This document shows, piece after piece, positions 115 through 22,710 of a DNA stretch of 32,288 nt. The first letter of the stretch is position 1; the number at the start of each line of letters is the position of its first letter. A program made the translations under genes and the position numbers. Origin of the DNA: an uncultured Lachnospiraceae bacterium. GTDB taxonomy: Bacteria; Bacillota; Clostridia; Lachnospirales; Lachnospiraceae. A model generated the notes under the pieces. The model worked only from the letters and a program-made list of their open reading frames with translations, did not search any database and was not told the origin of the DNA. The DNA lies in contig CANDKY010000040.1 in assembly GCA_947385425.1 (NCBI GenBank), positions 1 to 32,288 of the forward strand, written 5' to 3'.

Positions 115-3100
115 TCACCCTATAAGGAAACATCCATGCACCACCGTCTGCCTGCCGCCCTCCTTATAAACCCGCACATCCAATATAAATTTCCCTCCTG
201 CCCTCTGTCCTGCCCTGTTCCCGGCTATCCAGTCATTCAGGTTATCCGCGATTTCCTGCGGCGTCCTGGCATCCCAGAAAATCGTTACCGGGATACGCAC
301 ATTGACCCCGCCCGGGTGCATAACCGCCGGATATTCATAAAATACCGCCGCATTTACCGCCAACCCGTAATTACTGATTTGCAATAGCCCGAAAAGCTCC
401 GTGACGGCCGTTTCCACTGTCGTTCCCGAAAGTACATACGGCGTTGCATAATCCGCGCAGATTTCAAGGGGCGCAAGCCCTGTCTCTTCCGTCCGGAATA
501 CAAATTCCCCGCTTACCTCTGCACCGCAGTCCCCGAATAAATTCTCATTCCTTATCAAACGTGACTTTACCTGCATCCGGCTGCATAAATATATAGGCAG
601 GCTTTTAAGCGCCATGGGAATGGAAACCCAACCGTTTCCATCCCTTTGCACCTTATCCGGCAGGGATAAAGCCGCGCCGGTTTCCTTTAGCTGCCTGTCC
701 ACCTCCTGCCGGTTCAGAACCTTTAACACAGCTTCCTCCCCGTCCACGGCAAACCCAAGCTTCAGCGTTATGCTCCCGCCGGTTCCGGCTCCGGCCGCCC
801 TACCCGCATCTTCCGGGCAGCAGCGCAGCCTTTCATCCGTATAATATTCTGCGTAAGCTGCCAGCTTCCGGTATCCTTCCTCCTGCGTACCGTCAGCCCC
901 AAGCATACCCAAAATACTGTCGCGTTCCAACTGGTAATGTGCCAGCACATCAATCGGATCCTCCCATACATTTGTCTGCGCAGGCAGCTCTTCATAGCAA
1001 AACCGCACTTCAAGCATGTCCTGGTTATAAACCTGGGCGGCAACAGTCCCTTCATAATAATAATGCAGCAGTTCTTCCCCGTCCGTTCCATTGCGCTGGC
1101 CCGTCATCTGCGGCGGCAGCGGGCACTCTTTCTTTGGAAAAGGCACCGGGATCTGCGCTGTCAGGTCTGTCTGCCCCGTAACCGGCTCTACAAGCCGCAG
1201 CCAGTCAGACCTTTCGTATCCCCCGATTCCTTCACGGATGTGATATTCCAAATACGGGAAACGGATGCTAAGCTGTTCCGGGCTGCCTGCCGTTTCCGGC
1301 AGAAACAGGCAGAACACACCGCTTCCGTCCGTACCTTCCGATTCCGGCTTGGATGCCAGGATCCCTTTCCCGTCCTGAATCTCCGGCTCCAGGCGGTATT
1401 TCCTTTCCTGTTTCCAACCGGACCGATAGGCACAGATAACACCTGTTCCATATGCCGATGTCAAATTATCCAGAAACCGTTCCCGCACCATATCCCGGAC
1501 TGTCTCGGACACAGCCGCGCCGCCGTCCCGTACAGGGCAAATCCTGTATGACAACTGCCCTGCCAGTTTTTTCTTACTCCCAACCAGCCGGCTGACCGTC
1601 TCCGGACAGACCGCCGAAGCCCGGCAGGCCAGGCCCACATCCAACGCCTGCTCGATATCCGAAAGGAACTGCTTCTCCCATTGGTTGACATCCGCATCTA
1701 CAAATTGCGCCGCCCCGTATCCTCCATCCCTGTCCGGAATCCGGATTTCCTTAGTCAAAAGCGAAACAGACAGCGGTTTCAACGCGTAATATTCCGGGCA
1801 TCTGACCGTTGCGCCTGATAGCGGGACTGCATACGGCGCAATACGGAAATTATCCACAACACAGTCCCCAACGGCATAGGGCTGCCCCTGCGTATCATAA
1901 GCAAGCCTGTAGCCCTTTACAGACTGCGCAAACCCTGTATGGAATGCTTCCTCTGGTTCCAGCGGCATGACTGCCGTTTTCGCTGCCAGCGCCGGATCCT
2001 TTTCCGTACCGCCAGCGCCCCTCTGCAAATACAAATCGAAACGCAGCGGGATAATCTCCTCCCGCTTCGCCTGGATATCCACCTCAAACATAACGGACGG
2101 TGCATCCCTGCTTTCGCCGCATTCCCACCGGTAAAGCATCTCTACATATTCGCAGATCTGCCCTTTTACACTGCCCGGCAGGATACTCCGGCAATCCGAA
2201 AGCGTACACTCGGCATAAACACGCAAATCATCCTGTGAGAACTGGTCGAGGGCAGACAACAGGAGCCCGCATTCCGCTGTCTTCATCCCCCGTACATCAC
2301 CCGCTAAATCACTGGCTGCCACGGAATCCCTCACTGCTTCCGGCTTCCCGCCCGCCACAGCGTCCTTCACTGGCCCAGAATCCCTGTCTGCCGCAGGCTC
2401 CCCCACTGCTTCCGGCTTCCCGCCCGCCACAACGTCCTTCACTGGCCCAGAATCCCTGCCTGCCGCAGGCTCCCCCACTGCACCACACGTAACAAAAATC
2501 TTCACGGCTCCGGCTTCCCCCCTGCCAAAGCCATAAGTCACCTTAGTATCCGGCAGTTCATGCAAACCGATGAGAAGGTCATTATATTTCCCCTCCGCCA
2601 GGCAGGAACCACAGGCAGTCTGGTTCCCCAGCACATCACGCAGCATGAGGGAAAGCACGCTGCGTTTCCCCACTGCCCCATAACGGCTCGGACCGTACAT
2701 TTTCCACGCAGGGAATACAAACTGATAACCCATCTGCCCTGTATCCGCTGTGCTTACGGTTCCATTATCCGCTGCTCTGTCCGCCGTACTGCCTGTCCCT
2801 CTGTCTGCTGCCCCGTCCGTACCGCCGTCCGACGCGCCTCCTGTTCCGCTTTCCATACCGCCGCCTGTCTCCCCCGACATGGACGGCAGGATGGGACGGG
2901 ACTCATATGCCCTCTTCTCCCCGTATTCCGATTCCGCCGTATAACCCAAAATCTGGAACAGCATTTGGAACCGGTTATCGGGTTTATATGGGCGGGCCAG
3001 CGTAAATCCGGCACAACCCGGCGGCAGAAGCGGCACTTTATCCCTTTCCTCATCACCATAAAACGTTATACCGCCCGGCTCCTCCCGCAGGCAGACCGCA

Positions 3101-6100
3101 CGCACTGCATCCCCGCATGCCTGCCCGTCAAAACGCACTGCCAGGATCAGTTCCCCATATCCCTCCTCATTGAAATGATCTTCGGGCACAAAATCCTGCT
3201 CCCCATACATCCATAAATTCTCTCCCGTAACCGTACTTTCCCATAAAAGTCTCAAAAATGCGGGCATATCCGTTAAGTCCGCCAGGAAATCATTTCTTCC
3301 CGTTTCCCTGTTCCCCAAAGAAGCCGTTCCGAAAACGGAGTGGGTTACTGTAGACAATTTCGTCTGGATCACCCTGCACACGCCGCCTAATGCCGGAAGC
3401 AGCATTTTCTGCCCGCTCTGAAGCCGATCCGGGAAATAAAAGAAAAACCCGCTCAACCCCTCCGCCCCGAGCAAAGTATACAGCAATTCCGTCTCATCCC
3501 CCCGTACACCGGCCACCGCATAAATGCCCTTTTCCTTCCTGTACAGGCGGACGTTCAATACGGAGCCCCACCAAAGCGGATCCACCCCGGCGCCTTCCTT
3601 TTCCAACCGCAGCGCGCAGGAATGCCTGCCCAGATATCCATACATGGAATCCGGCAGCATCCCCAAATATTGCCTCATATCACCGCCCCCGGCAATCTCC
3701 CATCCGGAAACGCCCGTCCAGCACTTCGGACGGTAATCAAAATCCGGAATCTGCGCTATCCCGCCCAAAGCCTCCGTTTTCTCTTCCGGCAGCCAGGATG
3801 AAATCAAACCGGCCGGAATTTCCAGTAATTCCGTATCCACCGCAATCCATGCCGCATCCGGGCGGGCGCCAAGCCGCAGCCTGCAGTCCGTAACCGGACA
3901 CGGGAGCGGAAACTGCTGCCGCAATACCTCATACAACGGTTTTAAGCCAGTGTCCGTATTGGCAGGCAAACCGGACTGCGGTTCAAAGATTCTCGTCCCC
4001 TGCAAAAATGCCCTTGATATCACAGCGCCGATTTCCTTCACGGAGGTATTCCCCATCAGCCGGCTTCTCAATACATGTACCGGGATTTCCCGCGGCTCTG
4101 CTATATGCAGTGTCTGCCTTCCGTCCAAAGAAGCAGTCCCCCCATAAATGCACCCTGCCAGGGCCTCCATACCGAACCTTTCGGCAAAATACCCTGCATC
4201 CGCCCGCTGCCTTCCCTCTTCCATCTGCACATTTTCCAGCTCTATCCTGCATCCGGGCCGTAGGCAGGCCGTCTCCCAAAGCGGGAATTCCCACGGCCTG
4301 CCGTTAAAATACGGATACAGCCGCCGGAATACGGACGCTGCCGTGCCCATATCCAGAATTTTATCCAAATTTCTGCCAAGGGACAACATACTCTCCCGCA
4401 GCATACCCTGTACCTTTTCTTCCGTCCGGCTTTCCGCTTCCCATGCATACGGCTGTTTCCTTCTCTCCGTCCGGCTTTCCGCTTCCCATGCATACGGCTG
4501 TTTCCTTCCTTCCGTCCGGTTTTCCTCACCTCCGGCATACGGCTGCTTCCTTCCTCCCGTCCGGTTTTCCTCACCTCCGGCATACGGCTGCTTCCTTCCT
4601 CCCGTCCGGTTTTCCTCCTCTCCGGCATATGGCCGCAGCTTGCCTAAAACAGCCGCCTCTTTCGCCAGGCGCACTACGGTATCCCCCGCAAATGCCCGGC
4701 GGACCGATCCATCCGGCATTTTAACTGCCGTTTCCCCATATCTCTGACATTCCCACTGCAGATCAATATGCGGATTGTCCTTCAGAATCCGCTCCGCATA
4801 GGAACTGAAATAAACCTCCCCCTCCGAAAAACGGGCCGCATACATTGCCGCTTCCCCGGCCCGTGCATGGTCCAGGGCATCCCCCATGCCAAACAGGCCG
4901 GCCGCAGCAACCCCCGGATTTTCCGCAAAAAGTCCGCCACGGTGCGCAATTCCCTGCCAAAGCTGCTCCGGTGCCAGGCCGTACCGCAGGGCAAGATCAT
5001 TTAAAGTATCTCCCGGCCGCGTTTGGATGACAAGCTTCGGTACGGAAGCAACAACAAGGCTCATATCCGGGTTCCCGGCAAGCAGCGCCTCCGCCGCTAT
5101 GCCGTAATCTTCCAGGGCTTCCGCAAGCGTACCGCATTCCGCATCCAGCCCCCGGAACAGTTCCGCGGTTTTTCCGGTTAACTGCTCCGCGGCCAGCCTC
5201 ACCCAGTCCGTCAGTATCACGCCGCAGAGCGGAACCTTCTCCTGCCCGTTTCGCGCCTGCATGATTTCCTGCGGCAGTTCATAAGACGGATTGGCATTCA
5301 GCCATGCGTAATACTCCGCCAGCTTCCGGAAATCATCTTCTCCCGCCATTTTCTCATCATAACAAATAACGGTTTCATTTACCTGCAAAATAAGCTCGGG
5401 CAGCATAGGAAACAGGATACCTCCCGTCTCACTGCAGCCATCCTCATCGACAGATTCCTTTGACATCCTGACATGCACCCGGATATGCTCCGCAAAAAGC
5501 TGCCGGACAAATGCATAATCAATGGTTTCCGCCCGCAATGCTTCCTGCAGCGCACACAGATATTGCCGCCCCATCCGTTCCATTCCCTCAGGGCATAAAA
5601 TACGAAACAGCAGATCCGCCAATGAAGCCATATCCTCTTCACTGATAAACAAGGGGAATGCCATACAATAATCCCCGCCTTCCGTCAGTGAACAAAAGGG
5701 GAGCAGGACCGCCGTAATACTTATCCGCCCCTGCGCACTGTCCGGATGCAGGCAGACATTGGTTAATCCGCTTCTGTTTCCATTTTCCCCCGCCCCCGTC
5801 TCCCTTCCTGCCGGGACCGACTTTTCCGCCGCTAAAGACACCTTCCCCCCTGCCGGGGCCGGCCTTTCCGCCGCTAAGTTCTCCCTCCCCTTTGCCGGAA
5901 CCGGGATTTCCTCTGCCGATCCTGACGGATTTTTAAGCTGCCACGGCGTACTTTCCTCCGACCCGAACGAAAATTCCGCACGCTGGTGGAAATGGAATGA
6001 AAAAGAAATTTTAATAAACAATATTTTTATGTAGGCACTGAGTTCCAGTTCCAAATCCACTGCAAGAAGCGCGCGGCGATAGCTTTCCAACGTCATCTCG

Positions 6101-9100
6101 CAGAACGCCGTTATCTGTGCGGAAGCGCTGACGGCAATGATTTTAAAGTCAACATCCAGGAAGACAGTCCCCGATACTCCGGCCATCGCATAAACCTTAT
6201 AATAAAACCCCTGCCGTGCGCCGGTATCTTTGGGCTGGAATACGGCAAACACCCCCTCAAACATCCCAAATGCCGTCAGCGACACCCCGCCCCTGGCAAT
6301 TCCCAGATCAAAAGAACGCGATAACCCCACGGACAGCCCGATCCCTATTTTCACGACCGGGGAAAATGCCCCGTTTGTAATCTCCGGCACAGACTGTACG
6401 GCATCGCCATGGAAAACACCAAAATATATGCCCCCTTTCCCCATATAAATTCCAAACGCCATTCCCCATGACCTGGAAAAATCCCCGTTATGCGGGAATC
6501 CCAAATCCAGATAAAAACTCCCGTCCGTATACACTTCCACCAATATTTCCCCAAGGTAAAAGCGCACCGCACCCAAATCAATCTCTGAATACTGTTTCGG
6601 AAGTGTCAGCCTGCAATGGAACATGCCTGTTTCATCACTGATTTTTTTGTAAAAAAGTTCCAGGAACAGCCCCTGGAAAACCGCCAGCGGAGACTTATCC
6701 GGCACATCAATCCGGATAGCCGCGCCGTAGATTTCCGGGTCATACAATAACAGCCATATATGAAACAAATCCTGATAGGAAAAGTCCGAGGCAATAAGCC
6801 ACCCGCCCTGCTTCCTGCAGGAAAAATCCGGGATGCCGGAACACGGCGCCAGTGCCTTGCGGATATTTACGACCATATCCTGTATGGAATCCCCCTCCGC
6901 TTCTAACTCCAGACGGCTGCCAATGCCCAGATAGGCAATGTGGAATTTCTGCCCGTCCGTAGCCGCATTATCAGCCGGGCTTCCGTTCTGCGCATCCCAG
7001 GAAAGCGGTTCCTCCGGGGTATATTTCTGCCCGAGGCATGACCCGGTCACAATATAACGTATCTGCCCGTCTTCGTAAGAAACCCCGATTTGCTCGATAT
7101 CAACCAGGCCCGCTATGCTGCGGTTCACCTGATACAGGAAAAAAGCGGTTGTCCTTTCCCCGTCCCAGTCAATCCGGAACAGAAAATCCGACAATTTAAT
7201 CCGGTCCAGCACATCCCATGGCGGCGGAAGATAGTTACGCGCATTCGGATTTACCAGACGTATCAGGCCAAGGACAATGTCGCCAAGGGTCGTATTCCCA
7301 AGGGAAACCCGAAGGCTGTGGCGGGACTGCTCCTTCTTATATACCGCTTCCAGATACTTGTCCATAAGCCCGATGCGGAACAGATATGCCTTATCCTTCC
7401 GGTAAACATTATCCACCTGCGCCAAAGCGGTAAAAATCCCAAGCTGCAAATAGACCGCCAATGCCGCTTCCTTTTCTTCCCCGCACAGCCTCAGCCGCAG
7501 CCGCGCGCCGGCTGTCGGGCGTATTCCCAGGATATCAAACCACAGTTCACAGGACACAAACAAACAAAACTCTCTTTTTTCTACCGCATAAGACACAAGA
7601 AAGTCCTGAAGCCTGACCCCGGCGGCGGCAGTGTCCGTCACTTCCCTTCCCAGCACCGCCTGTATCAATGCGCCGAGATCTACTGTCCCGTATGCCAGAC
7701 CTCCCAAAAGCATCCACTCTTCCTTTTCATACACGGCAGACACGGAAAAAGCAAACTTCTGCCTGCTGCCGCCCTGCTCATAGGAAAAGGCAAGCCTGCC
7801 GGAAATCCCAAACCCCTTTTCCCCGCCGGAATAATCGAGAAATGCATGGATATTCTCCAGTTGGAATAAAAGCGTATCCGTAACCGGCAGGCTCAGCGCA
7901 TCGCAAACATCCATGGAAAGCCGCAGGCTGCGCATAATCGCATTTCCCTCGATCTCCATTGAAGTAATTGCATTTGCCCCCTGCCAGAAACCGGGAAGCC
8001 GGATCCCGCTTTGGGCTGCAATCCCCTGCAAAGTTTCATCCCCCTGCAGGATAAGCCTCCCCTGGAACTGCATCTGCGGTATATAAGCCGATACCTCGCC
8101 GTACAGCTTTAACTTCCCAAGCCCCAAAGCCGCGCCTGCGGCCAAAAACAGCGTTGCGGAGGGCTTTGCACCCTGCGGCCTGCTTGCCTCCCATACCGCA
8201 TCCAACCGTTCCAGCGTAAGATTAGGCAGGAAAATCTCCAGCGGCCCGTCAAGGGAGAAAATGCCCCTCGCATACTGCGGCAGGATACTGTCAAAAGTAT
8301 TGCCGCCGTCCCTGCACTGGTACACCAGATCCAGGCGTTTCAGCCCAAAAGAAGAGAAAAATGCCCCTTGCGGCAAAAATATCTGCTGCGCCGGCAGGGA
8401 AAGCAGCCCGCCCAGCATTTCCATAATATCCGGGACGGCAAGCGGCGGATTGGAAACCGCCGAATACTGCCAGACATCCTGCGCCCCTCCGAACAGCCCC
8501 GTATAAAACGTTACGGCCCTGTCCTGCCCCTTCACTGCGATTTCCCATTGCATATAGGCCCTGCTAACCATCTGCGGCCCTTCGGCGCGGCGGTTTTCCT
8601 CCGTGTCCAGGACAAGCATTCCCGTCCCTTCCCCAATCGGCAGCGACACGCTCTGCCCGGCCTGCAGATTCAGTTTTAGCTGTGTATAATCAAACCGGTA
8701 CGGCGCCAAAACCCCCTCCGTGGGCATGGCATCCGCCAGAAGCCATGCATAACTGTCCCACCGTGTGTCGGATTTCTTCCGTCCGGCCAGCCCTTTTAAC
8801 GATACATCCGTTAATTCGCTGCCATAGGAAAGCGTCAGGTTCGTCATGGAAAATCCGGCAAACAGGCTTTCCTCCGGCTTGCCCCCGCCTGGCAGAAACG
8901 GCGCAGGGCTGCACAAAAAATCCGCCAGATCCACATTCCCCGGAACAGACAGCAGCGCCCGATAGGAAAGCGTATCTTCCGTTTCCTGCATAGTTTCTAT
9001 GGAAATTCTCCCTTTCGGGATATGCAACGAAGCGTTTATGGAAGGCAGCTCCCCTTCTATGCGGACAAACTGCCCCGCATCCTGCAGGCTGCAGTCCGAT

Positions 9101-9243: not shown

Positions 9244-9410
9244 TTTCCTACCTCCCAAAACCATAGACTCTTGGAAACTCCCATAAAATTTAATCCCTCC
9301 AGGCGCGCATCCCCCACAAATTGCATCGCATATCTGTCGGAAAGTATTTTTAAGACACGCTCCAGTTGTCCGCGAAACAGCCATCCGGAGGGGTTATTAA
9401 CCTTTTGCAT
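9234..9410 (-). CDS. Possible small coupled gene between the hydrolase and the giant gene (58 aa)
   Basis: A third reading frame across the hydrolase/giant junction gives a protein-like sequence: MQKVNNPSGWLFRGQLERVL, then a segment with KILSDRYAMQFVGDARLEG, ending SLWFWEVGKWQ. It overlaps the last 61 bases of the hydrolase gene and runs 10 bases past the GTG start of the giant gene, which would suit translational coupling. The start at 9410 has only a weak ribosome binding site. An internal ATG (MGVSKSLWFWEVGKWQ) is preceded by GGAGGG at 10 nt. It could be a real small protein, a leader peptide, or the original C-terminus of the hydrolase displaced by a frameshift. No family is recognised. 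Confidence 0.4.
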   Translation of the reverse strand: MQKVNNPSGWLFRGQLERVLKILSDRYAMQFVGDARLEGLNFMGVSKSLWFWEVGKWQ

Positions 9411-10966
9411 CCGTCTGGACGCCCGGAAAACAACAGCCCGCCGTCCTCCACAACAATTTCCGGCCTGCCCAGCAATTCCGTAACGGTTTCCGTGGAATAA
9501 ATGGGATCGCATATAGATAAAGTCTCGAACCCGCTTCCCACCGTCATTCCCAGTTCATGCAAACCGACCTTATTCGTCAATACCGCCCCCGCCCTCATCA
9601 CAAAAGAAGCGTCCGGATGCCCGAATTTTCCATGCCAGGAGCTGATAACCAGACAGGCAGGATCCGCCTCTCCCAGGAAATTTATCACCGGCTGATCCGC
9701 CGCTTCCACCACAGCCCCGTCTTCCGCCGACTCCCATACAATATTTGTATTCCCCGAGCCATGATGCGGGGCAAGCATCACCTCCGGCTTACAGGAAGAA
9801 AACCCTGTCTTCCTCCACAATTCCAGAAAGCTGTTAAATGCATGTACCGTGGAATCGCCCGGAAATACAATACATTTCCCCGGCTGCCCGTACAGGGAAT
9901 AACAGACAATCAGCGATGTCGCATTTCTGTATATCTCAATGTTGTTTAGAGAACCATTCTGGGCGTCTTCCGCCAGTTCCGTTAACGCAAGCTCCCGCGC
10001 CGACACACCTCCGTTTCCGATGTTTAAGAAAGTCCCCGTATCAAAGGTCTGTAAGTTCCCGTAAAACCTCATCTGCGTCTGTAACTCACAATAACTCTGT
10101 CCGCACATCCCTCCGCCCATATAAATATCCGGCCCCTTTGGCAGGACTCCCGCCCCGTCAATATAGCCGGGGACATTCCCTATATTTCCCGCATCCGAAG
10201 CCTGAAACAGAACCGCAAATATACTCTTTATCCTATCCACATACCTCTTATAACTCCAATACTTCCTTCCAAGCTGCTCTTTGAGCATCTCAAAGAAAAG
10301 CGTAACCTGCTCTTCCGCCAACTGTACATAATTATCCGCCTCCGCAAAGCATTCCTCATACGACAGGCCGCAGGCGTCTATCTTTATTTTAATTCCTTCA
10401 AATGTAAAGGAGGAAGGCTGGGAATTTAAACACGAATAAAAAGTAAACCGGAAAACAGTATCTAACGCGGGCAAAGGGTATTGTATGGCGTACTTACATT
10501 TCAGTGTTTCCCTTCCTAAGAACCCGGTATAAGACACCTCCGCGCTTTGCCTGCATGCCGTCCGGCACGGCGTGCCATCCTCATAGCTTTCTTTAAAATA
10601 AACATTGTGACAGCACCCTAAGGGGTTTACGCTGCATTCATGGTAATGCCCATTCCCGTCCAGCATTTTCGCGGTCTTTAATGTGCCTTCCCCTTTATAC
10701 CACACGCCCCTTTCATACCCGGGATACAGCTCCCTCATCAGGCGTTCCAGAAAAGACCAATGGTCAATATCCTGATGCGATATCGTAACGGCATTCAGTC
10801 CCCCCGCACAACGGATAATTTCAGCCGCATACTGCAAAACATCCTCCGGGCTGACTGCAGGGTTCTGTTCCAGCGTCCCGCAGTCAGCCAGCATACAAAA
10901 CCCGTTATCAACCAGTAAGGTAAACAGCCCCTGCCCGATATTGAAAACATGGAGTTCATATGCCAT
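9350..10966 (-). CDS. ComEC-like metallo-beta-lactamase-fold hydrolase (538 aa)
   Basis: Probable metal-dependent hydrolase. The N-terminus (LHVFNIGQGLFTLLVDNG, then LADCGT) matches the opening strands of the ComEC/Rec2-type MBL domain. The metal motif HxDxDH is seen as H64-Q-D66-I-D68-H69. A later Gly-Asp (PGDS, D371), a His pair in APHHGS (H401, H402) and GHPDAS (H450) match the remaining conserved positions of that class. Between residues about 90 and 340 there is a large insertion with several cysteines that I do not recognise. No membrane segments are present, so it is not the ComEC channel itself. The start at 10966 has GGAGGTGA five bases upstream and overlaps the preceding gene by 11 bases. 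Family members cleave nucleic acids or phosphodiesters; the substrate here is unknown. It may process or regulate its giant neighbours. Confidence 0.85.
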   Translation of the reverse strand: MAYELHVFNIGQGLFTLLVDNGFCMLADCGTLEQNPAVSPEDVLQYAAEIIRCAGGLNAVTISHQDIDHWSFLERLMRELYPGYERGVWYKGEGTLKTAKMLDGNGHYHECSVNPLGCCHNVYFKESYEDGTPCRTACRQSAEVSYTGFLGRETLKCKYAIQYPLPALDTVFRFTFYSCLNSQPSSFTFEGIKIKIDACGLSYEECFAEADNYVQLAEEQVTLFFEMLKEQLGRKYWSYKRYVDRIKSIFAVLFQASDAGNIGNVPGYIDGAGVLPKGPDIYMGGGMCGQSYCELQTQMRFYGNLQTFDTGTFLNIGNGGVSARELALTELAEDAQNGSLNNIEIYRNATSLIVCYSLYGQPGKCIVFPGDSTVHAFNSFLELWRKTGFSSCKPEVMLAPHHGSGNTNIVWESAEDGAVVEAADQPVINFLGEADPACLVISSWHGKFGHPDASFVMRAGAVLTNKVGLHELGMTVGSGFETLSICDPIYSTETVTELLGRPEIVVEDGGLLFSGRPDGCKRLITPPDGCFADNWSVS

Positions 10967-13900
10967 ATCCTTCACCTCCATCCTGATCCGGCCCGCTTTT
11001 CCCGTCCTCATACGCCGCACACCATGCCGCGTCCCCATGCTCCCCAAGAATAAACACATCCACACCGCGCTTCGGGAAGGTAAGGCCGAGCGCGCGCAGC
11101 GCAAAACTATGCAGCCGGAAAAACAGCTTTCCGCCCTTGCCCTGTATCATCGTAATCCCGCTGAAACCTGCGTTCAAAATACCCTGGATGGAAAAAGCCT
11201 TCCCGAAAATACCGTCCGTCCGGACACCGATATAATAACCGCCCCCGCTCCATGCACCGAGCAGATAAAGGCATAACGGTTCGTTTCTCCCAAGCTGCCC
11301 GGAGGAATTTAAAGATACTTTCCATACCAGCCCATTCCATTTTCCGCTCAGCGCCCCCTGTTTTAACGGGGCATTGACGGACACATATCCCAGGCCATCC
11401 GGGCTTTCACCCTCCCTTTCAAACAGGACAGCATCTATTTTCGCTCCAAAAGCTTCCGCGAACGAATCCGGACGGATCTCTGCCTTGTCCTCCGACAGAC
11501 GCATACTGCTGTAATACACCTCATACTTTGCGGCATCCTTACAGATAAGCTGCAGCCCCGCGAAACCAATCCGCCCGTAGGAAAACAAATCAAGCCCTTC
11601 GCATTTTTCAAAGGAAAGAAAACCCTTTAATTCAAAGGACAGCACATCCCCCGCCACAGTCAATACGGCATCCCTTACCTGTACGGAAGCAACCGGCGGA
11701 TCCGCCGCCGTATATGCAGCCTGCGTTTCCACACCGAACTTATAGGACGTCCCGGCGCCCGTACATTCCATCCTGCCGGAAAGAACAATCTGCCCGCTGT
11801 CCCATCGGCTCTCCGGCGCAAGCCTGGCGCCAAATATATGGTAAAGGGACAGCTCCAGGCGGCTCTGGAAATATATTACCGCATTCTGTCCTATCACCGC
11901 TGTCAGCTCCCTTGTACAGGCGGTAAACGGCGCGCCGTCACTTTGCTGTGCCGGCGCTCCTTCATAGTAAACCAACGCGTCAATGGCGGAACGCCCGATG
12001 GAAATACCGGACGCGCCCGAAGTAATCCTTCCGTTGGAGACGGCGGCATAAACGGCCTCCGCCTTCCCGCCCCGGACAAGCCGGAGCGCCGCCTGGAGCT
12101 GAGGGGAAAGGGAATATATGCCTGCAGTCCCCCCTAACAGGAAAACCCCCTGGAACGACTTATCATCCAGCACCTTAAGCAGCGGCCCGTAACCCTTCCG
12201 AACGGCACCGTCCTTATCATACGCCATATTAAGCACCCGTTTTAACTGGGGCGTATCCGCAAGGCAGGAACGCAGCGTTACGGTTTCCGTCGCTTTCAAC
12301 ACAAACAGCCTATGACTGTCCCAATCCTGCGCGGAAAAGGAAAGAAGCCACCCATCCGCCGGAAGGGAAAAAGAGAGCTCCTTTTCCCCTAACCGCAGAA
12401 ATTCTTCTTTCGATTGTGCCATAAGTATGCAGTCCGGTTTCTGCAGTTCCTTCCTGGCCCATCCGGACGGATGCTCCAGCCGGATATCCGGCAGGCCCCC
12501 TTCACCCGTCTGAGCAAGCCCGGCCCAGTTCCAGATCCCGTTTTCCGGCTGCAGGCCGATGCAAATGCCGCATGGGGCAACCAGCAGTTTTTCCGTTTTC
12601 CCGGCCTGCCCGCCGGACTGCGCCGCATTATCTGTCCCCGCAGACAACAGCCGGTAGCGTTCCTGTGCCAGGATCTGTTCCAGCCGCTGTATGTCCTCCG
12701 CCAACTGTTCCCAACCTGCAGAATGCATATGCCCGTCCGGCATTCCCTGCCCGGCCCTCTGCGCACCCTCTGCCAATTGCCCCGGCCCGGCCGGCTGCAT
12801 ACATCCGCCAAACAGCTCCTCACCTGTGCCAATACCGCTCCAAGGCATCACCGGAAACGGAGCCGCCCATTCCCTAAACTCCTGTACTTTCGGAATATAT
12901 GCCCGTGAATAGTAAGTCCCAACATCAAAAAAAGGCATCGCGGCCGGCGCTGCGTAATAAGCGCCCCGGAAAGAAATCCATGAGGTTTCTGCCGCCCCTT
13001 CCCCCACCATAACGAACTTCCCTTCCGGCTGGCCGTCTCCTGCAGCTATCAGCCCGCTTTGGCCTGTAACAAATGCTATTCTGTCTATATCCGCACAATA
13101 TTCTGTTCCCGCCAGCCCGGGCATCAGCACGGTATCCTTATTTACCAGGAACTCCCCTTCCAAACCCAGATACCATTTATAAAGCGGCGCCAAATACTGC
13201 TGCCTGACGCTGTCATAAAAATAAACCTCCGCTCCCGTCTGGAACACCAGACGCACATTACCTGCAGACTTAAGCAAAACATTTTCCCCCTGGAGGGATA
13301 AAAAAGAGCTGTCCCAGTCTTTGCCGGCAGGAAGCCCTAGGTAACTTCTTGCACTATCGCCAACCGCTGCGGGGCATATACTGCACCTGCAGTCCATATC
13401 CCCGTCCGCATGCGGTGAAATAACCGGGCAGTATACCTGCCTTGTAAAATTGCATAATTCCCCCTTTGGCGTATCCTCCGGCAACATATACCGAAAGCGG
13501 ATACCGCTGCCCAGCCTGCCAAACCCATCCTTTGAAACGGTAAGCGAAAAGGACAGCGTCCCATAACTGTCTGCAAGGGAAAGCGCCGCTTTCTCCCCTG
13601 ATACTTTAAACGCATCACCGTTTCTGCCAAATATCCCCCTGAAATTTACCTGCGCATCCGACTCCATGGCGCCGCAGTACAAGGCAATCCAGTATTCGCC
13701 AACCATAATCTGAGGATTTTCCCCTATGCCTGCCGTAAACGACCAGCATTCCATCTCATCGCCAGGGTTTTCAATCCAAAGCAGGCGCATATCCATCTTA
13801 TCCGCCAATTGCTCCAGCTTCCTGCAAAATACCGTATCAGGCGTAAATCCTTCCGGAAAAAAAACCAGGCAATTGCCAGCCTTCCAGACATCGGCGGCAG

Positions 13901-14159
13901 CGCCTCCGGCATCCTTACCGGGGGTATTCCCGCTGATGGCGTTCTCTCTGATGGCATTCCTGCTGGCGGCATCCCTGCTGATAGCATTCTCTCCGGTGGC
14001 ATTCCTGCTGGCGGCATTCCTGCTGATGACATTCTCTTTGGCGGCATTCCTGCCGATGGCATCCCTGCCATTCACCTCCCTGCTTAGCAGGCACCATCCG
14101 TTTTTGCTTCTGTACAATGTTATCCGGTTTTGATAAATAAGCGTCATGTCCTGCATCAT
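10956..14159 (-). CDS. Large beta-rich protein of unknown family (1067 aa)
   Basis: Third long gene of the operon. The frame is open further upstream, but the ATG pair at 14159/14156 is preceded by GAGGGGG, so I start there; an upstream ATG at 14198 (MPENGSS) lacks a good site. Residues about 29-81 are a degenerate five-residue repeat (SRNAA, GENAI, SRDAA). The rest is beta-strand-rich, with many Gly/Tyr/Phe strands. Residues about 690-1050 resemble in texture the N-terminal half of the 3042-aa protein, e.g. LSGKWNGLVWKVSLNSSGQL and YYIGVRTDGIFGKAFSIQG. A CxCxxC cluster (DCRCSICP) lies in the first third. No signal peptide is visible. It ends with a TGA lying inside the start region of the hydrolase gene. 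I recognise no family. It could be a structural partner of the giant protein, but this is inference. Confidence 0.8.
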   Translation of the reverse strand: MMQDMTLIYQNRITLYRSKNGWCLLSREVNGRDAIGRNAAKENVISRNAASRNATGENAISRDAASRNAIRENAISGNTPGKDAGGAAADVWKAGNCLVFFPEGFTPDTVFCRKLEQLADKMDMRLLWIENPGDEMECWSFTAGIGENPQIMVGEYWIALYCGAMESDAQVNFRGIFGRNGDAFKVSGEKAALSLADSYGTLSFSLTVSKDGFGRLGSGIRFRYMLPEDTPKGELCNFTRQVYCPVISPHADGDMDCRCSICPAAVGDSARSYLGLPAGKDWDSSFLSLQGENVLLKSAGNVRLVFQTGAEVYFYDSVRQQYLAPLYKWYLGLEGEFLVNKDTVLMPGLAGTEYCADIDRIAFVTGQSGLIAAGDGQPEGKFVMVGEGAAETSWISFRGAYYAAPAAMPFFDVGTYYSRAYIPKVQEFREWAAPFPVMPWSGIGTGEELFGGCMQPAGPGQLAEGAQRAGQGMPDGHMHSAGWEQLAEDIQRLEQILAQERYRLLSAGTDNAAQSGGQAGKTEKLLVAPCGICIGLQPENGIWNWAGLAQTGEGGLPDIRLEHPSGWARKELQKPDCILMAQSKEEFLRLGEKELSFSLPADGWLLSFSAQDWDSHRLFVLKATETVTLRSCLADTPQLKRVLNMAYDKDGAVRKGYGPLLKVLDDKSFQGVFLLGGTAGIYSLSPQLQAALRLVRGGKAEAVYAAVSNGRITSGASGISIGRSAIDALVYYEGAPAQQSDGAPFTACTRELTAVIGQNAVIYFQSRLELSLYHIFGARLAPESRWDSGQIVLSGRMECTGAGTSYKFGVETQAAYTAADPPVASVQVRDAVLTVAGDVLSFELKGFLSFEKCEGLDLFSYGRIGFAGLQLICKDAAKYEVYYSSMRLSEDKAEIRPDSFAEAFGAKIDAVLFEREGESPDGLGYVSVNAPLKQGALSGKWNGLVWKVSLNSSGQLGRNEPLCLYLLGAWSGGGYYIGVRTDGIFGKAFSIQGILNAGFSGITMIQGKGGKLFFRLHSFALRALGLTFPKRGVDVFILGEHGDAAWCAAYEDGKSGPDQDGGEGYGI
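13917..14074 (-). repeat. 15-bp minisatellite near the 5' end of the 1067-aa gene
   Basis: About ten degenerate 15-bp units; on the plus strand the unit reads like GATGGCATTCCTGCT. They encode five-residue blocks with Asn/Asp-Ala cores. The array begins about 28 codons after the start. It does not fit the A(D/N)LxX pentapeptide-repeat fold because the central Leu/Phe is missing. Confidence 0.85.
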
Positions 14160-14220
14160 ATCCCCCTCTTCATAAGCGCTGGATCCATTTTCAGGCATGG
14201 CATGCCGCTGCGCCCGAAAA

Positions 14221-16404
14221 CTATACGGCAAAACAAATCCGATCCCCTGCAAGCAGCATAATATCTTCCGGATGGCCGGCAAAGGACAAATACACCGGCG
14301 CTTCACCGCCCCCTGCCGTCTGCCGGAACATTTCCACGCCCTGTATACCGATCCTGCCATACAGCCGCAGGATATCGCCAAGCGCGGATGACATTGGCAC
14401 CATCTGCCGTGTCCCGTTAACCAAGACAGGAATATTTAACGAAAGGCTGCTCCTGCCCCGGAATATGATAACCGGAAGACCCGGATTATTGATGCATGCC
14501 GGGTTTTCGGAAATTGCATCGCATGCAGACTGCATTTTTTGATAACAGTCCGCTGCCAAAAGAACAAAATTATTGGAAGGATACGGATTTTCCGTATCCA
14601 TGGCAGACGTAAAATGCCCCGGGTACAATACGCGGTAATACGGCTGGCGCAGCACAGGGTGCATCAGATCCATGCCGTTCGATACATAATATATGGAAGA
14701 CCCTCGGTTCCCGCCGCCGGAAACCGCCATATACTGCGCCATCCGGGAAGCAAAAGGATCAAATTCCAGATATTTCCCATCCCTTCCCAGCAATATCGGA
14801 TAAATCCTGGTATCCGCCGCGGAAAATCCCGTTGTATTTCCTGCATTCGTCTGGTACTGCGGCATATATACCGCGGATGTCACCTGAAGCCCCATGCCTG
14901 GCAGTACATCTGCCCAGCGTTTCTGCTCATCCATGGAACAGTAAAAATACGCCATATCCTTTTGCGCACAGCGCATCATCCTCACAAGGCATTCCCTGAC
15001 ATAATAAAATCCATATACAGACACCGTATCCCGGAGCCCCAGAATAAATTGCTCAAAATCCGCCCTTTGCATACTCTCTTCTGTACCGACTGTTAATCTA
15101 TAGCCAGTCCGCCCCTTTGCTAATGTAATCGGCCCGGCGCCGATCTTTTCTACGGACGTCCCGATAACATCACCGGAAATAACATGGGCCAGTCTGGCTT
15201 CCGTATAGGCCCCGCTCCTGTAAACCATCTGCAAAGTTCCGTCCTCAGCTTCCTGCGGATAAAACCCGCTGCAAAACAGCCGTATCCGGGCGGACGGCCC
15301 CATACGCTGTTTCCCGCCGCAGTTGTACATTGTACGCACCACCAGCTCCTTATCCCGGAATGCCTCAAACCCAAACGACATGTCCCGCCAGAAAACCCTG
15401 TCCCCCGATACCCAAAAGCCCGTTACCGGACAGGAACTATCCTCCAGATACATCGAGCAGCCAAACCCCTCCGGAGACACCCTGTCTATACATATTCTCG
15501 GTTTCTGCAGCGGAATACGCGTCCCGGCCTGCGCAATCCTGCTCCTGGCGCTCCCATGTATCTGAAAAATGCCCACATGGTATTGTCCCAGAAATCCGCC
15601 GCCCATATCATTAGGGCTGATTAGCGCCGTACAGGTGTAATACCCATCTTTATCGGCTTCCGCCGAGAGCGTAACCGGATCCGATTCAAAAATTTCTTCC
15701 CCGCCCTTCTCCAGCCAGACTACTGCCTGCGGCAAATCACGGTAGACAGAATAAACCTTCAGTAAAATAAAAGTACCTGCCTTACCCATTCTCCTCTCAA
15801 GCTCGGCTTCCAGAATCACCAGGCCGGATGCATCAAACCGCTGCACGGCGCTTTGAATCCCCACGGATACGCCGCCCCCCGTTTCATACAGGACTGCCTG
15901 CATGGAAGCGCCTTTCGCCGGCGCAGGCGGACGGAAAGAACATAACCTGCTTTGCGGGTTGATATCATAAAAATATTGCGTCCCGTCCGCATACTCTACC
16001 ATACATACACCGGTCCTGTTCCACGGGGAACTTATTTTCCAGAAAAGGCAGATCTCATTCCCGTCATAATACCCGCTGACATCCTGGAATATCCCGATTG
16101 GGACGGCAGCCTGCTCACTTATGGTTCCTCCCTGCCCTTCCGGCAGCCCGACAGATATCCGGTACAGCGGGTCGCCGCCGGATTTTTCCGTCTGTCTGCC
16201 AAAAGTTACTTCTGCACTGCATCTCCCGGATTTATCCGTGAATTCCCGGGTGTCCTCTATAGAACCATACCATTTTATGATATACGTCCCCATGTACAGC
16301 CCGGTTTCATCTGCTTCAAGCTTCCATTGCAGCCTGACAGAAACCTCTTTCTCCGTTATTTGTGTTACTTCCACACGGAAAAGATCTATCTGGTTTATAA
16401 TCAT
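14221..16404 (-). CDS. Beta-sandwich repeat protein of unknown family (727 aa)
   Basis: Second gene of the operon. Its ATG overlaps the TGA of the preceding Hint gene (ATGA), and AGGAGGG lies 6 nt upstream, so the start is well supported. Residues 1-380 look like four successive beta-sandwich modules of about 90 residues; the first reads DLFRVEVTQITEKEVSVRLQ then LQWKLEADETGLY. They are fibronectin-III-like in strand spacing, but no diagnostic motif is visible. Residues about 440-640 are more mixed, with helical segments and Tyr/Met-rich stretches. The C-terminal 90 residues include SLNIPVLVNGTRQMVPMSSA followed by LGDILRLYG, a beta-grasp-like pattern. No signal peptide or membrane helix is present. 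The role is unknown; position and coupling imply it works with the Hint protein and the larger downstream proteins. Confidence 0.8.
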   Translation of the reverse strand: MIINQIDLFRVEVTQITEKEVSVRLQWKLEADETGLYMGTYIIKWYGSIEDTREFTDKSGRCSAEVTFGRQTEKSGGDPLYRISVGLPEGQGGTISEQAAVPIGIFQDVSGYYDGNEICLFWKISSPWNRTGVCMVEYADGTQYFYDINPQSRLCSFRPPAPAKGASMQAVLYETGGGVSVGIQSAVQRFDASGLVILEAELERRMGKAGTFILLKVYSVYRDLPQAVVWLEKGGEEIFESDPVTLSAEADKDGYYTCTALISPNDMGGGFLGQYHVGIFQIHGSARSRIAQAGTRIPLQKPRICIDRVSPEGFGCSMYLEDSSCPVTGFWVSGDRVFWRDMSFGFEAFRDKELVVRTMYNCGGKQRMGPSARIRLFCSGFYPQEAEDGTLQMVYRSGAYTEARLAHVISGDVIGTSVEKIGAGPITLAKGRTGYRLTVGTEESMQRADFEQFILGLRDTVSVYGFYYVRECLVRMMRCAQKDMAYFYCSMDEQKRWADVLPGMGLQVTSAVYMPQYQTNAGNTTGFSAADTRIYPILLGRDGKYLEFDPFASRMAQYMAVSGGGNRGSSIYYVSNGMDLMHPVLRQPYYRVLYPGHFTSAMDTENPYPSNNFVLLAADCYQKMQSACDAISENPACINNPGLPVIIFRGRSSLSLNIPVLVNGTRQMVPMSSALGDILRLYGRIGIQGVEMFRQTAGGGEAPVYLSFAGHPEDIMLLAGDRICFAV

Positions 16405-17963
16405 TGGTTTCCCTCCTGAAAAATACCCGGATTATTCTGCGCCTCCATATTCCCCACAATAACCCCTTCCGCTATCATGGAATCCGCTCTGCCTCCTTCA
16501 CAGGAAAGATTGTAAACCGTAACCGGACGGTATTCTTTTTCCACGGCATCCACCTGTGCATACCCGCCATCCGCTAATGCGGCGGCATCCGCAGCGGCCA
16601 TATTCTCCGCCCTTTTCCAGCCCTCCCTTGATAAAACAGGGTGATTCCCGGTCAGATACAGGTTTTTCCCTCCTGTTTGAAGCCGGATAATATTGCTCTC
16701 CTCCCCCTTCCATATATTGATAACTTCCGCGCTCCCGTCCCTCGTCCGGATACGATCGCCGATCTTCACATCCTGTATCTTTTTTTCCGAACCGTCTTCC
16801 ATACGGATTGCGGTATTTTCCGCCACACAGCCCCACATAATGGAAATCGGGCTGATTGTCGTGTCATATTCGGACTCCAGAGGGAGCGATGTTACCTGAC
16901 GGCGGTACACATGGGAAACGCCGCCCCTATCCCTGCAGGTAATCAATATATCCAGCAGATAATCAAAAACATATTCTGTCCAGCCGCCGCCATACAGGAA
17001 AGAATTATCCCATTTGTTTTTATCATCCCATACAACCACATTATTGATAACCTTTACGGATATATTCTGGTTGGGATCCTGCAGCGCCGGAGCGGAAGCG
17101 AGCCGGTATCCCCCGTTTCCCTGCTTATAAATCAAATAACACCTGGCCGTAACATCGGTCACTTCAAAATAGTTTCCCGCTTTCAGGGAAACACTCCCCT
17201 CAGACGGCACTGTCAGGTTCGGGTTCCCCTGCGGATCCTTCCCGAATTTGCACAGATAATCCAAATCGGAAGTCTTGTCCGGTTCGCGGTACAGCGCAAT
17301 ATTTATTGTTCCTTCCTCCCCTGTTTCTCTTCCGTTTTGTATCAGCCCTCCGGCAAGCCCTGCTTCCGCCTTCGCGGCATCCCCTGCCGCCCAGTCCGCA
17401 TCCCCGTAGGTGATATAATTTTCCTGCTTCTGCGGATGCACCACCACCGGTTTATCAAACGGCTCTTCCGTCAGATACCCCAGCCGTGCCGCCCATTCGG
17501 GCCTGAAATCCCGGGCCGAATCCCAGGAAGCAATCATCAGGATAATTACCTGGTCTTCCCTTTTCCCCTGCAAAACGTCGGTTTTACAGGTAAAATCAGC
17601 CGATAGCTCAGAGCCGCTTTTTACCCGCTTCGTTCCCATATGGTAAAGAAAATTTTCCGTCTCCGTATCAACAATATAAGCATTAAATTCGATCGACTCA
17701 CAAAGTGGCAGTTGGACATGCGCCGCCGCGTAGACAAGGCCCAGTTCATAAGAACACGCACAGGTATAGGTAAACAAATAGTACTCTTTCCCCTGTTCCA
17801 ATGAACCCTCGGACAGAAAAGCAAGCCTGTCTTCCGCCTGGCTGCTGCGTATAAAATTTCTCCCTTCCTTATGGCTCTTCATACAATAAGATAAGATTTC
17901 CGTGCTTTTTGATTCCATGCTTTCCGAACCCATATTTTTTGATCCCATACTTTTGTGTTCCAT
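16401..17963 (-). CDS. Protein with C-terminal Hint (intein-like) autoprocessing domain (520 aa)
   Basis: First gene of the giant-protein operon. I start at 17963 because AAAGGA lies 9 nt upstream; an in-frame ATG at 17990 has no good site. Residues 2-20 are a five-residue repeat (KSMGS, KNMGS, ESMES). Residues about 20-375 are beta-rich and unrecognised. Residues 379-505 form a Hint domain: C379 in WGCVAENTAI, the turn VKIGDRIRT, TxxH as T438-G-N-H441, and a terminal block YNLSCEG...AEGVIVGN ending at N505. Inteins end His-Asn before Cys/Ser/Thr; here it is Gly-Asn followed by Met506, so protein splicing is unlikely. N-terminal thioester cleavage, or C-terminal Asn cleavage releasing a 15-residue tail, remains possible, as in bacterial intein-like domains. 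No homing endonuclease insert is present. No signal peptide is seen. The Hint assignment is strong; function is inferred. Confidence 0.85.
   Translation of the reverse strand: MEHKSMGSKNMGSESMESKSTEILSYCMKSHKEGRNFIRSSQAEDRLAFLSEGSLEQGKEYYLFTYTCACSYELGLVYAAAHVQLPLCESIEFNAYIVDTETENFLYHMGTKRVKSGSELSADFTCKTDVLQGKREDQVIILMIASWDSARDFRPEWAARLGYLTEEPFDKPVVVHPQKQENYITYGDADWAAGDAAKAEAGLAGGLIQNGRETGEEGTINIALYREPDKTSDLDYLCKFGKDPQGNPNLTVPSEGSVSLKAGNYFEVTDVTARCYLIYKQGNGGYRLASAPALQDPNQNISVKVINNVVVWDDKNKWDNSFLYGGGWTEYVFDYLLDILITCRDRGGVSHVYRRQVTSLPLESEYDTTISPISIMWGCVAENTAIRMEDGSEKKIQDVKIGDRIRTRDGSAEVINIWKGEESNIIRLQTGGKNLYLTGNHPVLSREGWKRAENMAAADAAALADGGYAQVDAVEKEYRPVTVYNLSCEGGRADSMIAEGVIVGNMEAQNNPGIFQEGNQ
17908..17953 (-). 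repeat. 15-bp repeat at the 5' end of the Hint gene
   Basis: About three 15-bp units immediately after the start codon encode KSMGS-KNMGS-ESMES. The plus strand shows repeated blocks like TTTTTTGATCCCAT. It has the same period as the arrays at 13917-14074 and 21017-21195. Confidence 0.75.
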
Positions 17964-20972: not shown

Positions 20973-20974
20973 TT

Positions 20975-21226
20975 TTACCCCCATTTCCTTCTCTGTTTTA
21001 TCATACCTGCCTTTTTTGTATCCGCGTTTATTGTATCTGCTTTTGTTATATCTGCTTTTGCTACATCTGTTTTTGTTGTTTCTGCTTTTGTTGCATCTGT
21101 TTTTGTTGTTTCTGCTTTTGCTGCATCTGTTTTTGCTTCTTCTGCTTTTGCTGCATATGTTTTTGCTGCTTCTATTTGCGATGCTTCTGCTTTTGTTGTA
21201 TCCATGTTTGGAAGGACAGAGCACAT
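20975..21226 (-). CDS. Possible repeat-encoded small protein (83 aa)
   Basis: An 83-codon frame starts one base after the TGA of the AlbA_2 regulator and stops two bases before the ATG of the carboxylesterase, so it fills the gap exactly. It encodes MCSVLPNMD, then about 13 five-residue blocks of the type AAKAE, TTKTD, ATKAE, and a basic end MIKQRRKWG. The repeat part should form a charged helix. The ribosome binding site is weak (GAAGTG). The carboxylesterase frame is also open through the same DNA as KSRNN/KNRCS blocks, so openness alone proves little. It may be a coupling ORF, a real helical peptide, or only a minisatellite. Confidence 0.35.
   Translation of the reverse strand: MCSVLPNMDTTKAEASQIEAAKTYAAKAEEAKTDAAKAETTKTDATKAETTKTDVAKADITKADTINADTKKAGMIKQRRKWG
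21017..21195 (-). repeat. 15-bp minisatellite upstream of the carboxylesterase
   Basis: About twelve 15-bp units of the type TCTGCTTTTGTTGCA on the plus strand, strongly pyrimidine/G biased. No stop codons occur in at least two minus-strand frames. It separates the AlbA_2 regulator from the carboxylesterase. Confidence 0.92.
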
Positions 21227-22655: not shown

Positions 22656-22710
22656 CTGCCTGCTGCTCCGCTTTTTTATTAAGCGGCATAACAAATTTCT
22701 GCTCCCGGCT

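What the first reader, a model, noticed from the sequence alone, without database searches (positions are those of the whole stretch)
115..17963. Uncharacterised 17.8-kb operon: Hint protein, two beta-rich proteins, ComEC-like hydrolase, giant LysM protein
Sequence: five long minus-strand genes, each with a strong ribosome binding site. Junctions are ATGA (16401-16404), a 61-base gap before 14159, an 11-base overlap at 10956-10966, and a 106-base gap that may hold a small gene. None has a signal peptide. No phage, sheath, secretion or toxin-immunity gene is adjacent. Known: Hint domains autoprocess, ComEC-like MBL domains hydrolyse phosphodiesters, LysM binds GlcNAc polymers. Inference: a single multi-protein machine or secreted assembly matured by Hint and controlled by the hydrolase. 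The combination does not match any system I can name.
Basis: partly seen in the sequence, partly recalled or inferred. Interest (0 to 1): 0.88.

Follow-up and report, generated by a model that had tools for sequence, protein, structure and literature searches.

The report
Conserved giant-protein operon with swappable hydrolase
Five neighbouring genes in a gut-type Clostridia genome belong to a rare, widely scattered gene set, in which two very large beta-strand-rich proteins travel with an interchangeable, probably DNA- or RNA-cutting enzyme; no description of it was found in the papers that could be searched.

Summary
In detail: five long minus-strand genes with the stated junctions, on a contig ending 114 bases past the giant gene. 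Libraries recognise only the Hint domain and, below cut-off, a LysM and a ComEC-type metallo-beta-lactamase (MBL).

I collected 26 further loci from several phyla. The 1141-aa ORF's protein (P3) precedes the giant in 25 of 27 loci; the other two are on truncated contigs. The order Hint-P4-P3-MBL-giant occurs in 10 of 27. In 247 Bacteroidota genomes P3 occurs in exactly the 3 with a strong giant match; in 240 Alphaproteobacteria genomes P4 does the same (3 and 3). So this is one system.

The enzyme slot is swapped: MBL (15), EEP-type nuclease (3), a third domain (6), none seen (3). MBL and EEP motifs are kept. The giant is distantly related to DUF6603 repeat proteins. The Hint domain keeps its Cys and His but lacks the terminal His-Asn of splicing inteins.

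Mechanism, inferred, at 0.4: a giant scaffold that holds and deploys a nuclease against other cells or foreign DNA. An intracellular anti-phage role is the main rival. Structure prediction never ran.

The parts
16401..17963 (-). P0005, Hint protein: about 378 aa N-terminal region of unknown fold, a Hint domain (Cys379, His441, Asn485, block G VGN in the numbering from 17963) and a short tail; in-frame alternative start at 17990
   Evidence: Pfam Vint 36.4 bits against a cut-off of 27. Profile hits to inteins and a bacterial intein-like domain of the PDB.
14221..16404 (-). P0004 (P4 family), 727 aa, unknown fold; its C-terminal half is the best conserved part
   Evidence: Present in 14 of 27 loci. 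In 240 Alphaproteobacteria genomes found only in the 3 with a strong giant match; in one of these, G540, on another contig than the giant.
10956..14159 (-). P0003 (P3 family), 1067 aa from the ATG at 14159, unknown fold; constant partner of the giant
   Evidence: Upstream of the giant in 25 of 27 loci; in 247 Bacteroidota genomes found only in the 3 with a strong giant match.
9350..10966 (-). P0002, ComEC-type metallo-beta-lactamase-fold hydrolase, 538 aa, motifs HQDIDH, PGDS, PHHGS
   Evidence: HxDxDH in 18 of 19 MBL ORF rows and HHG in 18 of 19; the misses are the two halves of a split L011 gene.
115..9243 (-). P0001, giant protein, about 3042 aa from the GTG at 9243 (open frame extends to 9384): DUF6603-like repeats in the N-terminal part, conserved core around aa 900-1140 (YTNGxFxxDLGFPxNxDF), degenerate LysM at 1456-1477 (numbering of the ORF from 9384)
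   Evidence: hhalign with DUF6603 proteins: probability 98.1, E 1e-13.
9244..9349 (-). 106-base spacer between the MBL and giant genes; no separate small gene supported

Best explanation
The five genes are one horizontally moving system. SHOWN BY COMPARISON: a two-protein core, P3 plus a giant DUF6603-related protein often bearing LysM, found together in every locus where the contig is long enough. Next to the core sits a slot for a hydrolase that is exchanged between unrelated folds with conserved active-site motifs: MBL of the ComEC type, or an EEP nuclease. A third, unidentified domain is fused to the giant or lies beside it in another branch. An accessory Hint-P4 pair occurs mostly in the MBL branch. 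INFERRED: P3 and the giant form a large beta-rich scaffold or shell. LysM domains attach it to GlcNAc-containing walls (peptidoglycan or chitin). The hydrolase is the business end and cuts nucleic acid. The Hint domain activates the Gly-Cys junction as a thioester in the manner of Hedgehog, releasing or covalently attaching the N-terminal domain of P0005. Together they would deploy a nuclease at or outside the cell surface against other cells or foreign DNA.
For: One system: the order is conserved in loci of several phyla. P3 occurs in exactly the 3 of 247 Bacteroidota genomes with a strong giant match, and P4 in exactly the 3 of 240 Alphaproteobacteria genomes with one. One genome of each three was the chosen centre.
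Slot swapping: MBL in 15, EEP in 3, third domain in 6, none seen in 3 of 27.
Catalysis kept: HxDxDH in 18 of 19 and HHG in 18 of 19 MBL ORF rows; GDFN and SDHLP in 3 of 3 EEPs (by eye).
Nuclease: the closest NCBIfam models are 6A-MBL and ComEC for the MBLs scanned and MnuA for the one EEP scanned, all far below cut-off.
Hint chemistry: Cys and block-B His in 8 of 8, terminal His-Asn in 0 of 8 (8 of the 10 Hint loci).
Outside the cytoplasm: the G558 MBL has a lipobox-like N-terminus (by eye), a small gene beside L029 has a Sec-like N-terminus (by eye), LysM is strong in 2 of 3 relatives scanned, and giants are clearly cysteine-poor relative to hand-picked flanking genes in 4 of 7 annotated plasmid loci.
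Against: By eye no signal peptide was seen on P3 or the giant in the N-termini I read, and I noticed no secretion genes nearby; neither was searched for systematically. In 3 of 7 annotated plasmid loci the giant is not clearly cysteine-poor, and the window's giant has 56 cysteines. I noticed no recurrent immunity-like partner. In 3 of 27 loci no slot enzyme was seen (L026, L028, and L020, which is truncated). Hint was not seen in 17 of 27. The third domain is not a recognised nuclease; Pfam and NCBIfam give nothing for the one scanned separately (L018). No structure could be predicted and no substrate is known.
Confidence: 0.4

Rival explanations
1. Intracellular anti-phage (or anti-plasmid) defence: P3 and the giant sense infection and unleash the MBL or EEP nuclease on DNA. 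Hint or, in Paenibacillus, a trypsin-like protease is the activating processing step.
For: Scattered, single-copy distribution on chromosomes and plasmids. The nearest named MBLs belong to anti-phage systems or ComEC (6A-MBL; Avs1a for an MBL beside a DUF6603 gene). MBL nucleases activated by proteolysis in Hachiman and AVAST are published (PMC12799240, abstract and passages). L029 lies between SIR2-family and type III-B CRISPR genes with cas1, cas2 and a CHAT gene nearby; L028 lies about 10-13 kb from a nucleotidyltransferase-E2-JAB cluster. L026 has a Nal1-like protease before P3.
Against: No NTPase or other known sensor or switch domain was recognised in the window's operon, and no PADLOC model beyond a weak homing-endonuclease match to the Hint protein. 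Defence neighbours were noted in a few loci and no control was run. LysM domains and a lipoprotein-type MBL do not fit a cytosolic sensor.
Confidence: 0.3
2. A cell-surface or matrix machine of polymer metabolism, for example capturing and degrading extracellular DNA or wall polymer for nutrition or adhesion, with no conflict role.
For: LysM; ComEC-type MBL as in DNA uptake; a gene beside the Azospirillum B510 locus that reads like a GH18 chitinase to me, though Pfam found no family in it.
Against: Very sporadic distribution among relatives (2 of 195). Swapping of unrelated hydrolases in one slot is more typical of effectors (general knowledge). I noticed no linked transport genes.
Confidence: 0.17
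3. A protein-injecting toxin complex that works like Tc-type toxins: P3 and the giant form a translocating shell and the slot protein is the cargo.
For: Giant subunits and an exchangeable enzymatic cargo slot; no immunity partner noticed; the Hint domain of L013 matches Pfam 'Pretoxin HINT' above cut-off (37.3 against 27.7).
Against: Apart from that Hint family, no Pfam match to a toxin or Rhs family in the proteins scanned. No credible profile match to solved structures for P3, P4 or the N-terminal 1109 aa of the giant. No fold was available.
Confidence: 0.08
4. Unrelated neighbours by accident, or prophage genes.
For: The Diplocloster locus lies next to phage-tail-like genes (by eye).
Against: 27 loci with conserved order; exact co-occurrence; no match in 50,697 phage records and none confirmed in viral contigs.
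Confidence: 0.02

Closest known systems
DUF6603 repeat proteins (Pfam PF20248)
   Same: Distant homology of the repeat region (hhalign probability 98.1, E 1e-13). In 2 of 4 confirmed DUF6603 loci a ComEC-type MBL gene is the immediate neighbour (L067, L071).
   Different: The window giant and four relatives score no DUF6603 match at E up to 1. My P3, P4, Hint, EEP and SH profiles hit no displayed gene next to the DUF6603 genes. DUF6603 is annotated as of unknown function, and a search for the name found no paper.
ComEC/Rec2 MBL nuclease domain
   Same: HxDxDH, GD and HHGS motifs; weak NCBIfam match.
   Different: 14.4 bits against a cut-off of 190; the P0002 sequence shows no competence membrane region by eye.
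Anti-phage MBL proteins (6A-MBL; Avs1a; trypsin-MBL modules of Hachiman and AVAST)
   Same: Same MBL type, as part of a multi-gene locus.
   Different: 18.8 bits against a cut-off of 220 for 6A-MBL. No protease and none of the partner proteins of those systems recognised in the window operon.
Hint superfamily: Hedgehog/Vint, bacterial intein-like domains, inteins
   Same: Pfam Vint above cut-off; Cys379, His441 and Asn485 invariant in 8 sequences; profile match to the solved bacterial intein-like domain 2lwy, E 2.3e-10.
   Different: No terminal His-Asn (0 of 8), so no intein-type splicing is expected; the N-terminal domain is of an unknown kind.

Membership tests
DUF6603 (PF20248) | Pfam model matched at its gathering score of 27 bits | tested here: not met
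   No DUF6603 match at E up to 1 in P0001 or the L014, L015 and L018 giants, nor at E up to 10 in P0006.
DUF6603 (PF20248) | Common ancestry of the repeat region | tested here: met
   hhalign probability 98.1, E 1e-13; the core profile hits two Pfam-confirmed DUF6603 proteins (L034, L035) at E 1.2e-6 and 1.9e-6.
Hint / Hog domain | Catalytic Cys1 and block-B His | tested here: met
   8 of 8 sequences; G1212 and G1341 were not in the alignment.
Splicing intein | C-terminal His-Asn followed by Cys, Ser or Thr | tested here: not met
   Gly-Asp in 7 of 8 and Gly-Asn in the window; the next residue in the window is Met.
ComEC-type MBL hydrolase | HxDxDH, GD and HHG metal-binding motifs | tested here: met
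   HxDxDH and HHG each in 18 of 19 ORF rows; the misses are halves of one split gene. G558 has HxHxDH instead (by eye).
ComEC-type MBL hydrolase | Nuclease activity | not testable with these tools
   Needs an enzyme assay.
EEP nuclease (L014, L024, L029) | Pfam Exo_endo_phos above 24.5 bits | tested here: not met
   22.4 bits for L024 and 21.4 for L029; no match for L014. Assignment rests on these near-misses and on GDFN and SDHLP motifs by eye; my EEP profile was built from these same three sequences.
6A-MBL anti-phage system | NCBIfam equivalog cut-off of 220 bits | tested here: not met
   18.8 bits for P0002; 22.6 and 19.4 for L013 and L022.
Trypsin-MBL defence module | Trypsin-like protease fused to a downstream defence enzyme next to the MBL | tested here: not met
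   No protease recognised in the window operon. L026 has a Nal1-like protease but no recognised MBL.
Contractile or phage-tail-like injection system | Sheath, tube and baseplate genes | tested here: not met
   No such PHROGs match for the five proteins; none among the window ORFs of 115 aa or more upstream of the operon, by eye.
LysM protein | PF01476 above 20.9 bits | tested here: inconclusive
   Window 15.6 bits; relatives L015 95.1, L018 57.7 and L014 17.2 bits.
Tc-type toxin complex | Homology to Tc toxin subunits and a translocating shell | tested here: inconclusive
   No such family match in the proteins scanned; structure not available.

The most novel reading that the evidence does not exclude
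A new class of mobile giant-protein nanomachine, built from two very large beta-rich proteins instead of a tail or Rhs shell. It carries an exchangeable hydrolase and in one branch is matured by a Hedgehog-type Hint reaction that attaches a domain covalently. It belongs to a wider superfamily with DUF6603 loci, in which a giant beta-repeat protein is paired with a ComEC-type nuclease.
Probability: 0.3. Interest if true: 0.9.

Novelty: categorically new. Interest (0 to 1): 0.72.

Why it matters
The window's operon spends about 18 kb on proteins that family libraries hardly name, yet the same set occurs in several phyla with its order kept and its enzyme exchanged. That pattern marks a functional module under selection. 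If the inference is right it is an undescribed way for bacteria to carry and deploy a nuclease, and it gives a first functional context (MBL pairing) to DUF6603 repeat proteins. Named carriers such as Diplocloster agilis, Tistrella mobilis, Azospirillum and Paenibacillus make it testable.

Tried and rejected
Phage or prophage origin: rejected. Small gene in the 106-base gap: rejected. P3 as a relative of the giant, and homology among P3, P4, Hint and SH: hhalign gave none. The GTB-GiantN match is trivial because the GTB seed contained the N-terminus of a giant. Matches of P4 to troponin and of P3 to WbpB in the PDB: chance level. A first LysM pattern was wrongly spaced and was replaced. 'Same chromosomal spot downstream of rplQ' in the window and Diplocloster looked striking, but about 10 kb of other genes intervene in the window and L010 has different neighbours, so I treat it as coincidence. 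'GT-B-like' for the third domain is my reading of the sequence; no search confirmed it. The chitinase reading of L025:9441-10373 was not confirmed by Pfam. My EEP, third-domain and SH profiles were seeded with L014/L024/L029, L018/L021 and L021/L025/L027, so their hits on those loci are circular; the independent hits are the third domain in L019, L025, L027 and G644 and SH in G644. The MBL of G558 was found by eye; my MBL profile missed it. The weak match in G267 (17.8 bits) was dropped from counts. Weak matches (L033-L035, L047, L052, L053) were kept out of the 27 loci: L034 and L035 are DUF6603 by Pfam, L067 and L071 (the loci of L033 and L052) by my own profile; L053 was not looked at further and for L070 (L047) the matching ORF was hidden by a longer ORF on the other strand, so it is unconfirmed. 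L029 was left out of the tree (fragmentary core): 26 of 27 rows. Flanking genes for the cysteine comparison were picked by hand, 63 CDS in seven loci. Papers: PMC12799240 was seen as abstract and passages; no other paper was opened. 'Not described' rests on searches without hits and on 72 (6 listed) and 104 (10 of 38 listed), in whose titles I saw no matching system; the library is open-access only.
Full report
OBSERVATION. The window is one entire contig of a 4.4-Mb draft genome in 198 contigs. Its right end carries the rpsM-rpsK-rpsD-rpoA-rplQ genes (by eye) and its left end stops 114 bases after the giant gene. Scans of the five proteins with Pfam, NCBIfam, PHROGs and PADLOC recognise a Hint domain in P0005 and, below cut-off, a LysM in P0001 and a ComEC/6A-MBL signature in P0002. 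P0003 and P0004 match nothing credible.

RELATIVES. A search with aa 1-1300 of the giant found 2 of 195 genomes: the window's own and one other, which proved to be Diplocloster agilis. The own genome has one copy. A search of 341 genomes of the class with the two-sequence profile gave the own genome and one weak match that I dropped. The alignment of the two, used on genome contigs, gave 12 loci, one of them Diplocloster again, the others in MAGs titled Lachnospiraceae, Clostridia, Blautia, Muribaculaceae, Pseudonocardiales, Bacteroidetes, Flaviaesturariibacter, Spirochaetales and Alphaproteobacteria. tblastn gave 8 of 72,556 plasmid records, the same eight with a second query, and none of 50,697 phage records. 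In viral contigs 19 stretches matched a pattern and none was confirmed. Profile searches gave 3 strong matches among 247 Bacteroidota, 3 among 246 genomes of the class of L014 (Actinomycetota), 1 among 148 of the class of L018 (Spirochaetota) and 3 among 240 of the class of L020 (Alphaproteobacteria), the centre genome counted each time; the same searches gave 3, 1, 0 and 2 weak matches. The six strong matches that were not centres were fetched. With the window that makes 27 loci.

ANATOMY ACROSS LOCI. Labelling with family profiles (with for slot genes) gives P3 before the giant in 25 of 27; L014 and L020 are cut by contig ends. P4 is in 14 and Hint in 10, each time next to P4. The full order Hint-P4-P3-MBL-giant is in 10: the window, L011, L012, L013, L016, L017, L022, L023, G1212 and G1341. 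A different small gene (SH, about 250 aa) precedes P3 in 4 (L021, L025, L027, G644). The slot holds one or two MBL genes in 15, an EEP-type nuclease in 3 (L014, L024, L029), and a third domain in 6, fused to the giant in 5 and separate in L018. Nothing was seen in L020 (truncated), L026 and L028; L026 instead has a Nal1-like protease gene before P3. Some of these labels are circular or by eye, as told under Tried and rejected: the three EEPs miss the Pfam cut-off or give no match, and the G558 MBL was found by eye. The giant is split into two genes in L015, L022, L026, L027, G1212 and G1341. A LysM-like pattern in the middle of the giant, or in its second gene in L026, was found in 14 of 27 loci and not in the window; Pfam finds LysM in L018 as well.

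CO-OCCURRENCE TEST. In 247 Bacteroidota genomes P3 was found in 3, exactly the 3 with strong giant matches. In 240 Alphaproteobacteria genomes P4 was found in 3, exactly the 3 with strong giant matches. One genome of each three was the chosen centre. Leaving it out, chance would pick the same two genomes about once in 30,000 in each sample (my arithmetic). Two qualifications: the G558 P3 match reads through one stop codon, and in G540 the P4 match lies on another contig than the giant, so adjacency is not shown there.

HISTORY. The core tree (26 rows) has two main groups with 97/98 support; the root is for drawing only. Hint (10 of 10) and MBL (14 of 15; the exception is G558) fall in one group. 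SH (4 of 4) and the third domain (6 of 6) fall in the other. P4 is in both (13 and 1). Phyla are mixed in both groups, which points to horizontal transfer, with the caution that most contig loci are MAGs. L016 and L017 are near-identical although their MAGs are labelled Blautia and Muribaculaceae, which suggests a binning error.

WHAT THE PARTS ARE. Giant: profile-profile comparison links it to DUF6603 repeat proteins (probability 98.1, E 1e-13; repeated at 97.8), although it fails the DUF6603 model itself. MBL: HxDxDH in 18 of 19 rows and HHG in 18 of 19. EEP: GDFN and SDHLP by eye in 3 of 3. Hint, 8 of the 10 loci aligned: Gly-Cys in 7 of 8 and Ser-Cys in L023, block-B His in 8 of 8, terminal His-Asn in 0 of 8. 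From general knowledge of Hint chemistry (recalled), this fits N-terminal thioester formation of the Hedgehog type without intein splicing. No credible solved relative was found for P3, P4 or the N-terminal 1109 aa of the giant.

WHERE IT ACTS. Evidence is mixed. For the surface or outside: a lipoprotein-type MBL in G558 (by eye), a Sec-like small protein before P3 in L029 (by eye), LysM, and cysteine depletion of the giant against flanks in L022, L024, L025 and L029. Against or neutral: no clear depletion in L026, L027 and L028, high cysteine in the window, and no signal peptides noticed on P3 or the giant. For defence: L029 sits among SIR2 and type III-B CRISPR genes and L028 lies about 10-13 kb from a nucleotidyltransferase-E2-JAB cluster; these are uncontrolled observations. 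A published precedent for MBL nucleases recruited by unrelated immune systems and activated by proteolysis is PMC12799240 (abstract and passages). For a toxin: the Hint domain of L013 matches Pfam's Pretoxin HINT above cut-off.

A SISTER SET. Five loci of weak matches were examined. Four hold a DUF6603 gene by my profile (L067, L068, L069, L071); for L070 it was not displayed. Two, L067 and L071, have a ComEC-type MBL gene as immediate neighbour (Pfam Lactamase_B above cut-off). Large unknown proteins recur beside them: an opening 'LQLYDNY' in L067 and L068, similar proteins in L069 and L070, and an 'LHW' motif in roughly 1100-1300-aa proteins of L068, L069 and L070 (by eye); those scanned match no Pfam model. 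A giant beta-repeat protein paired with an MBL may therefore be a wider theme.

VERDICT. The system is real, conserved and, as far as I could search (without hits; without a matching system in the listings; open-access papers only), undescribed. The mechanism is inferred: a giant scaffold with an exchangeable nuclease, probably used in conflict, location unsettled.

Noticed in passing
L067:6318-12513 and L071:6982-13504: DUF6603 genes with an adjacent ComEC-type MBL gene (same strand in L067, divergent in L071); large unknown proteins with 'LQLYDNY' (L067, L068) or 'LHW' (L068, L069, L070) motifs recur in this set (by eye).
   Followed up: partly
L021:1466-2206 and L037:2485-3177: Response regulators (LytTR/AgrA-like by eye) upstream of the operon in Diplocloster and in the L013 genome, suggesting regulated expression.
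   Followed up: no
L029 (Azospirillum lipoferum AZO_p2, about 55-110 kb of the record): The P3-EEP-giant operon sits between SIR2-family genes, a type III-B CRISPR module with cas1, cas2 and cas6, a CHAT-domain gene and several transposases.
   Followed up: partly
L026:14207-15187: A Nal1-like protease gene abuts P3 in Paenibacillus sp. 37, reminiscent of protease-activated nuclease modules.
   Followed up: no
L016 and L017: Near-identical operons in MAGs labelled Blautia and Muribaculaceae from similarly named isolates; probably one organism mis-binned.
   Followed up: partly
window 21000-21224: The esterase-like ORF (19371-21224) has a long N-terminal extension of repeated NKSR/NKNRC units, probably upstream of the true start.
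   Followed up: no
window 21228-22724: ORF that reads like an ATP-binding regulator, with an in-frame VGDK tandem repeat before a C-terminal winged-helix-like region (by eye).
   Followed up: no
L011:6347-8178: The MBL gene is split into two overlapping ORFs, each with half of the metal motifs; a frameshift or an assembly error.
   Followed up: no
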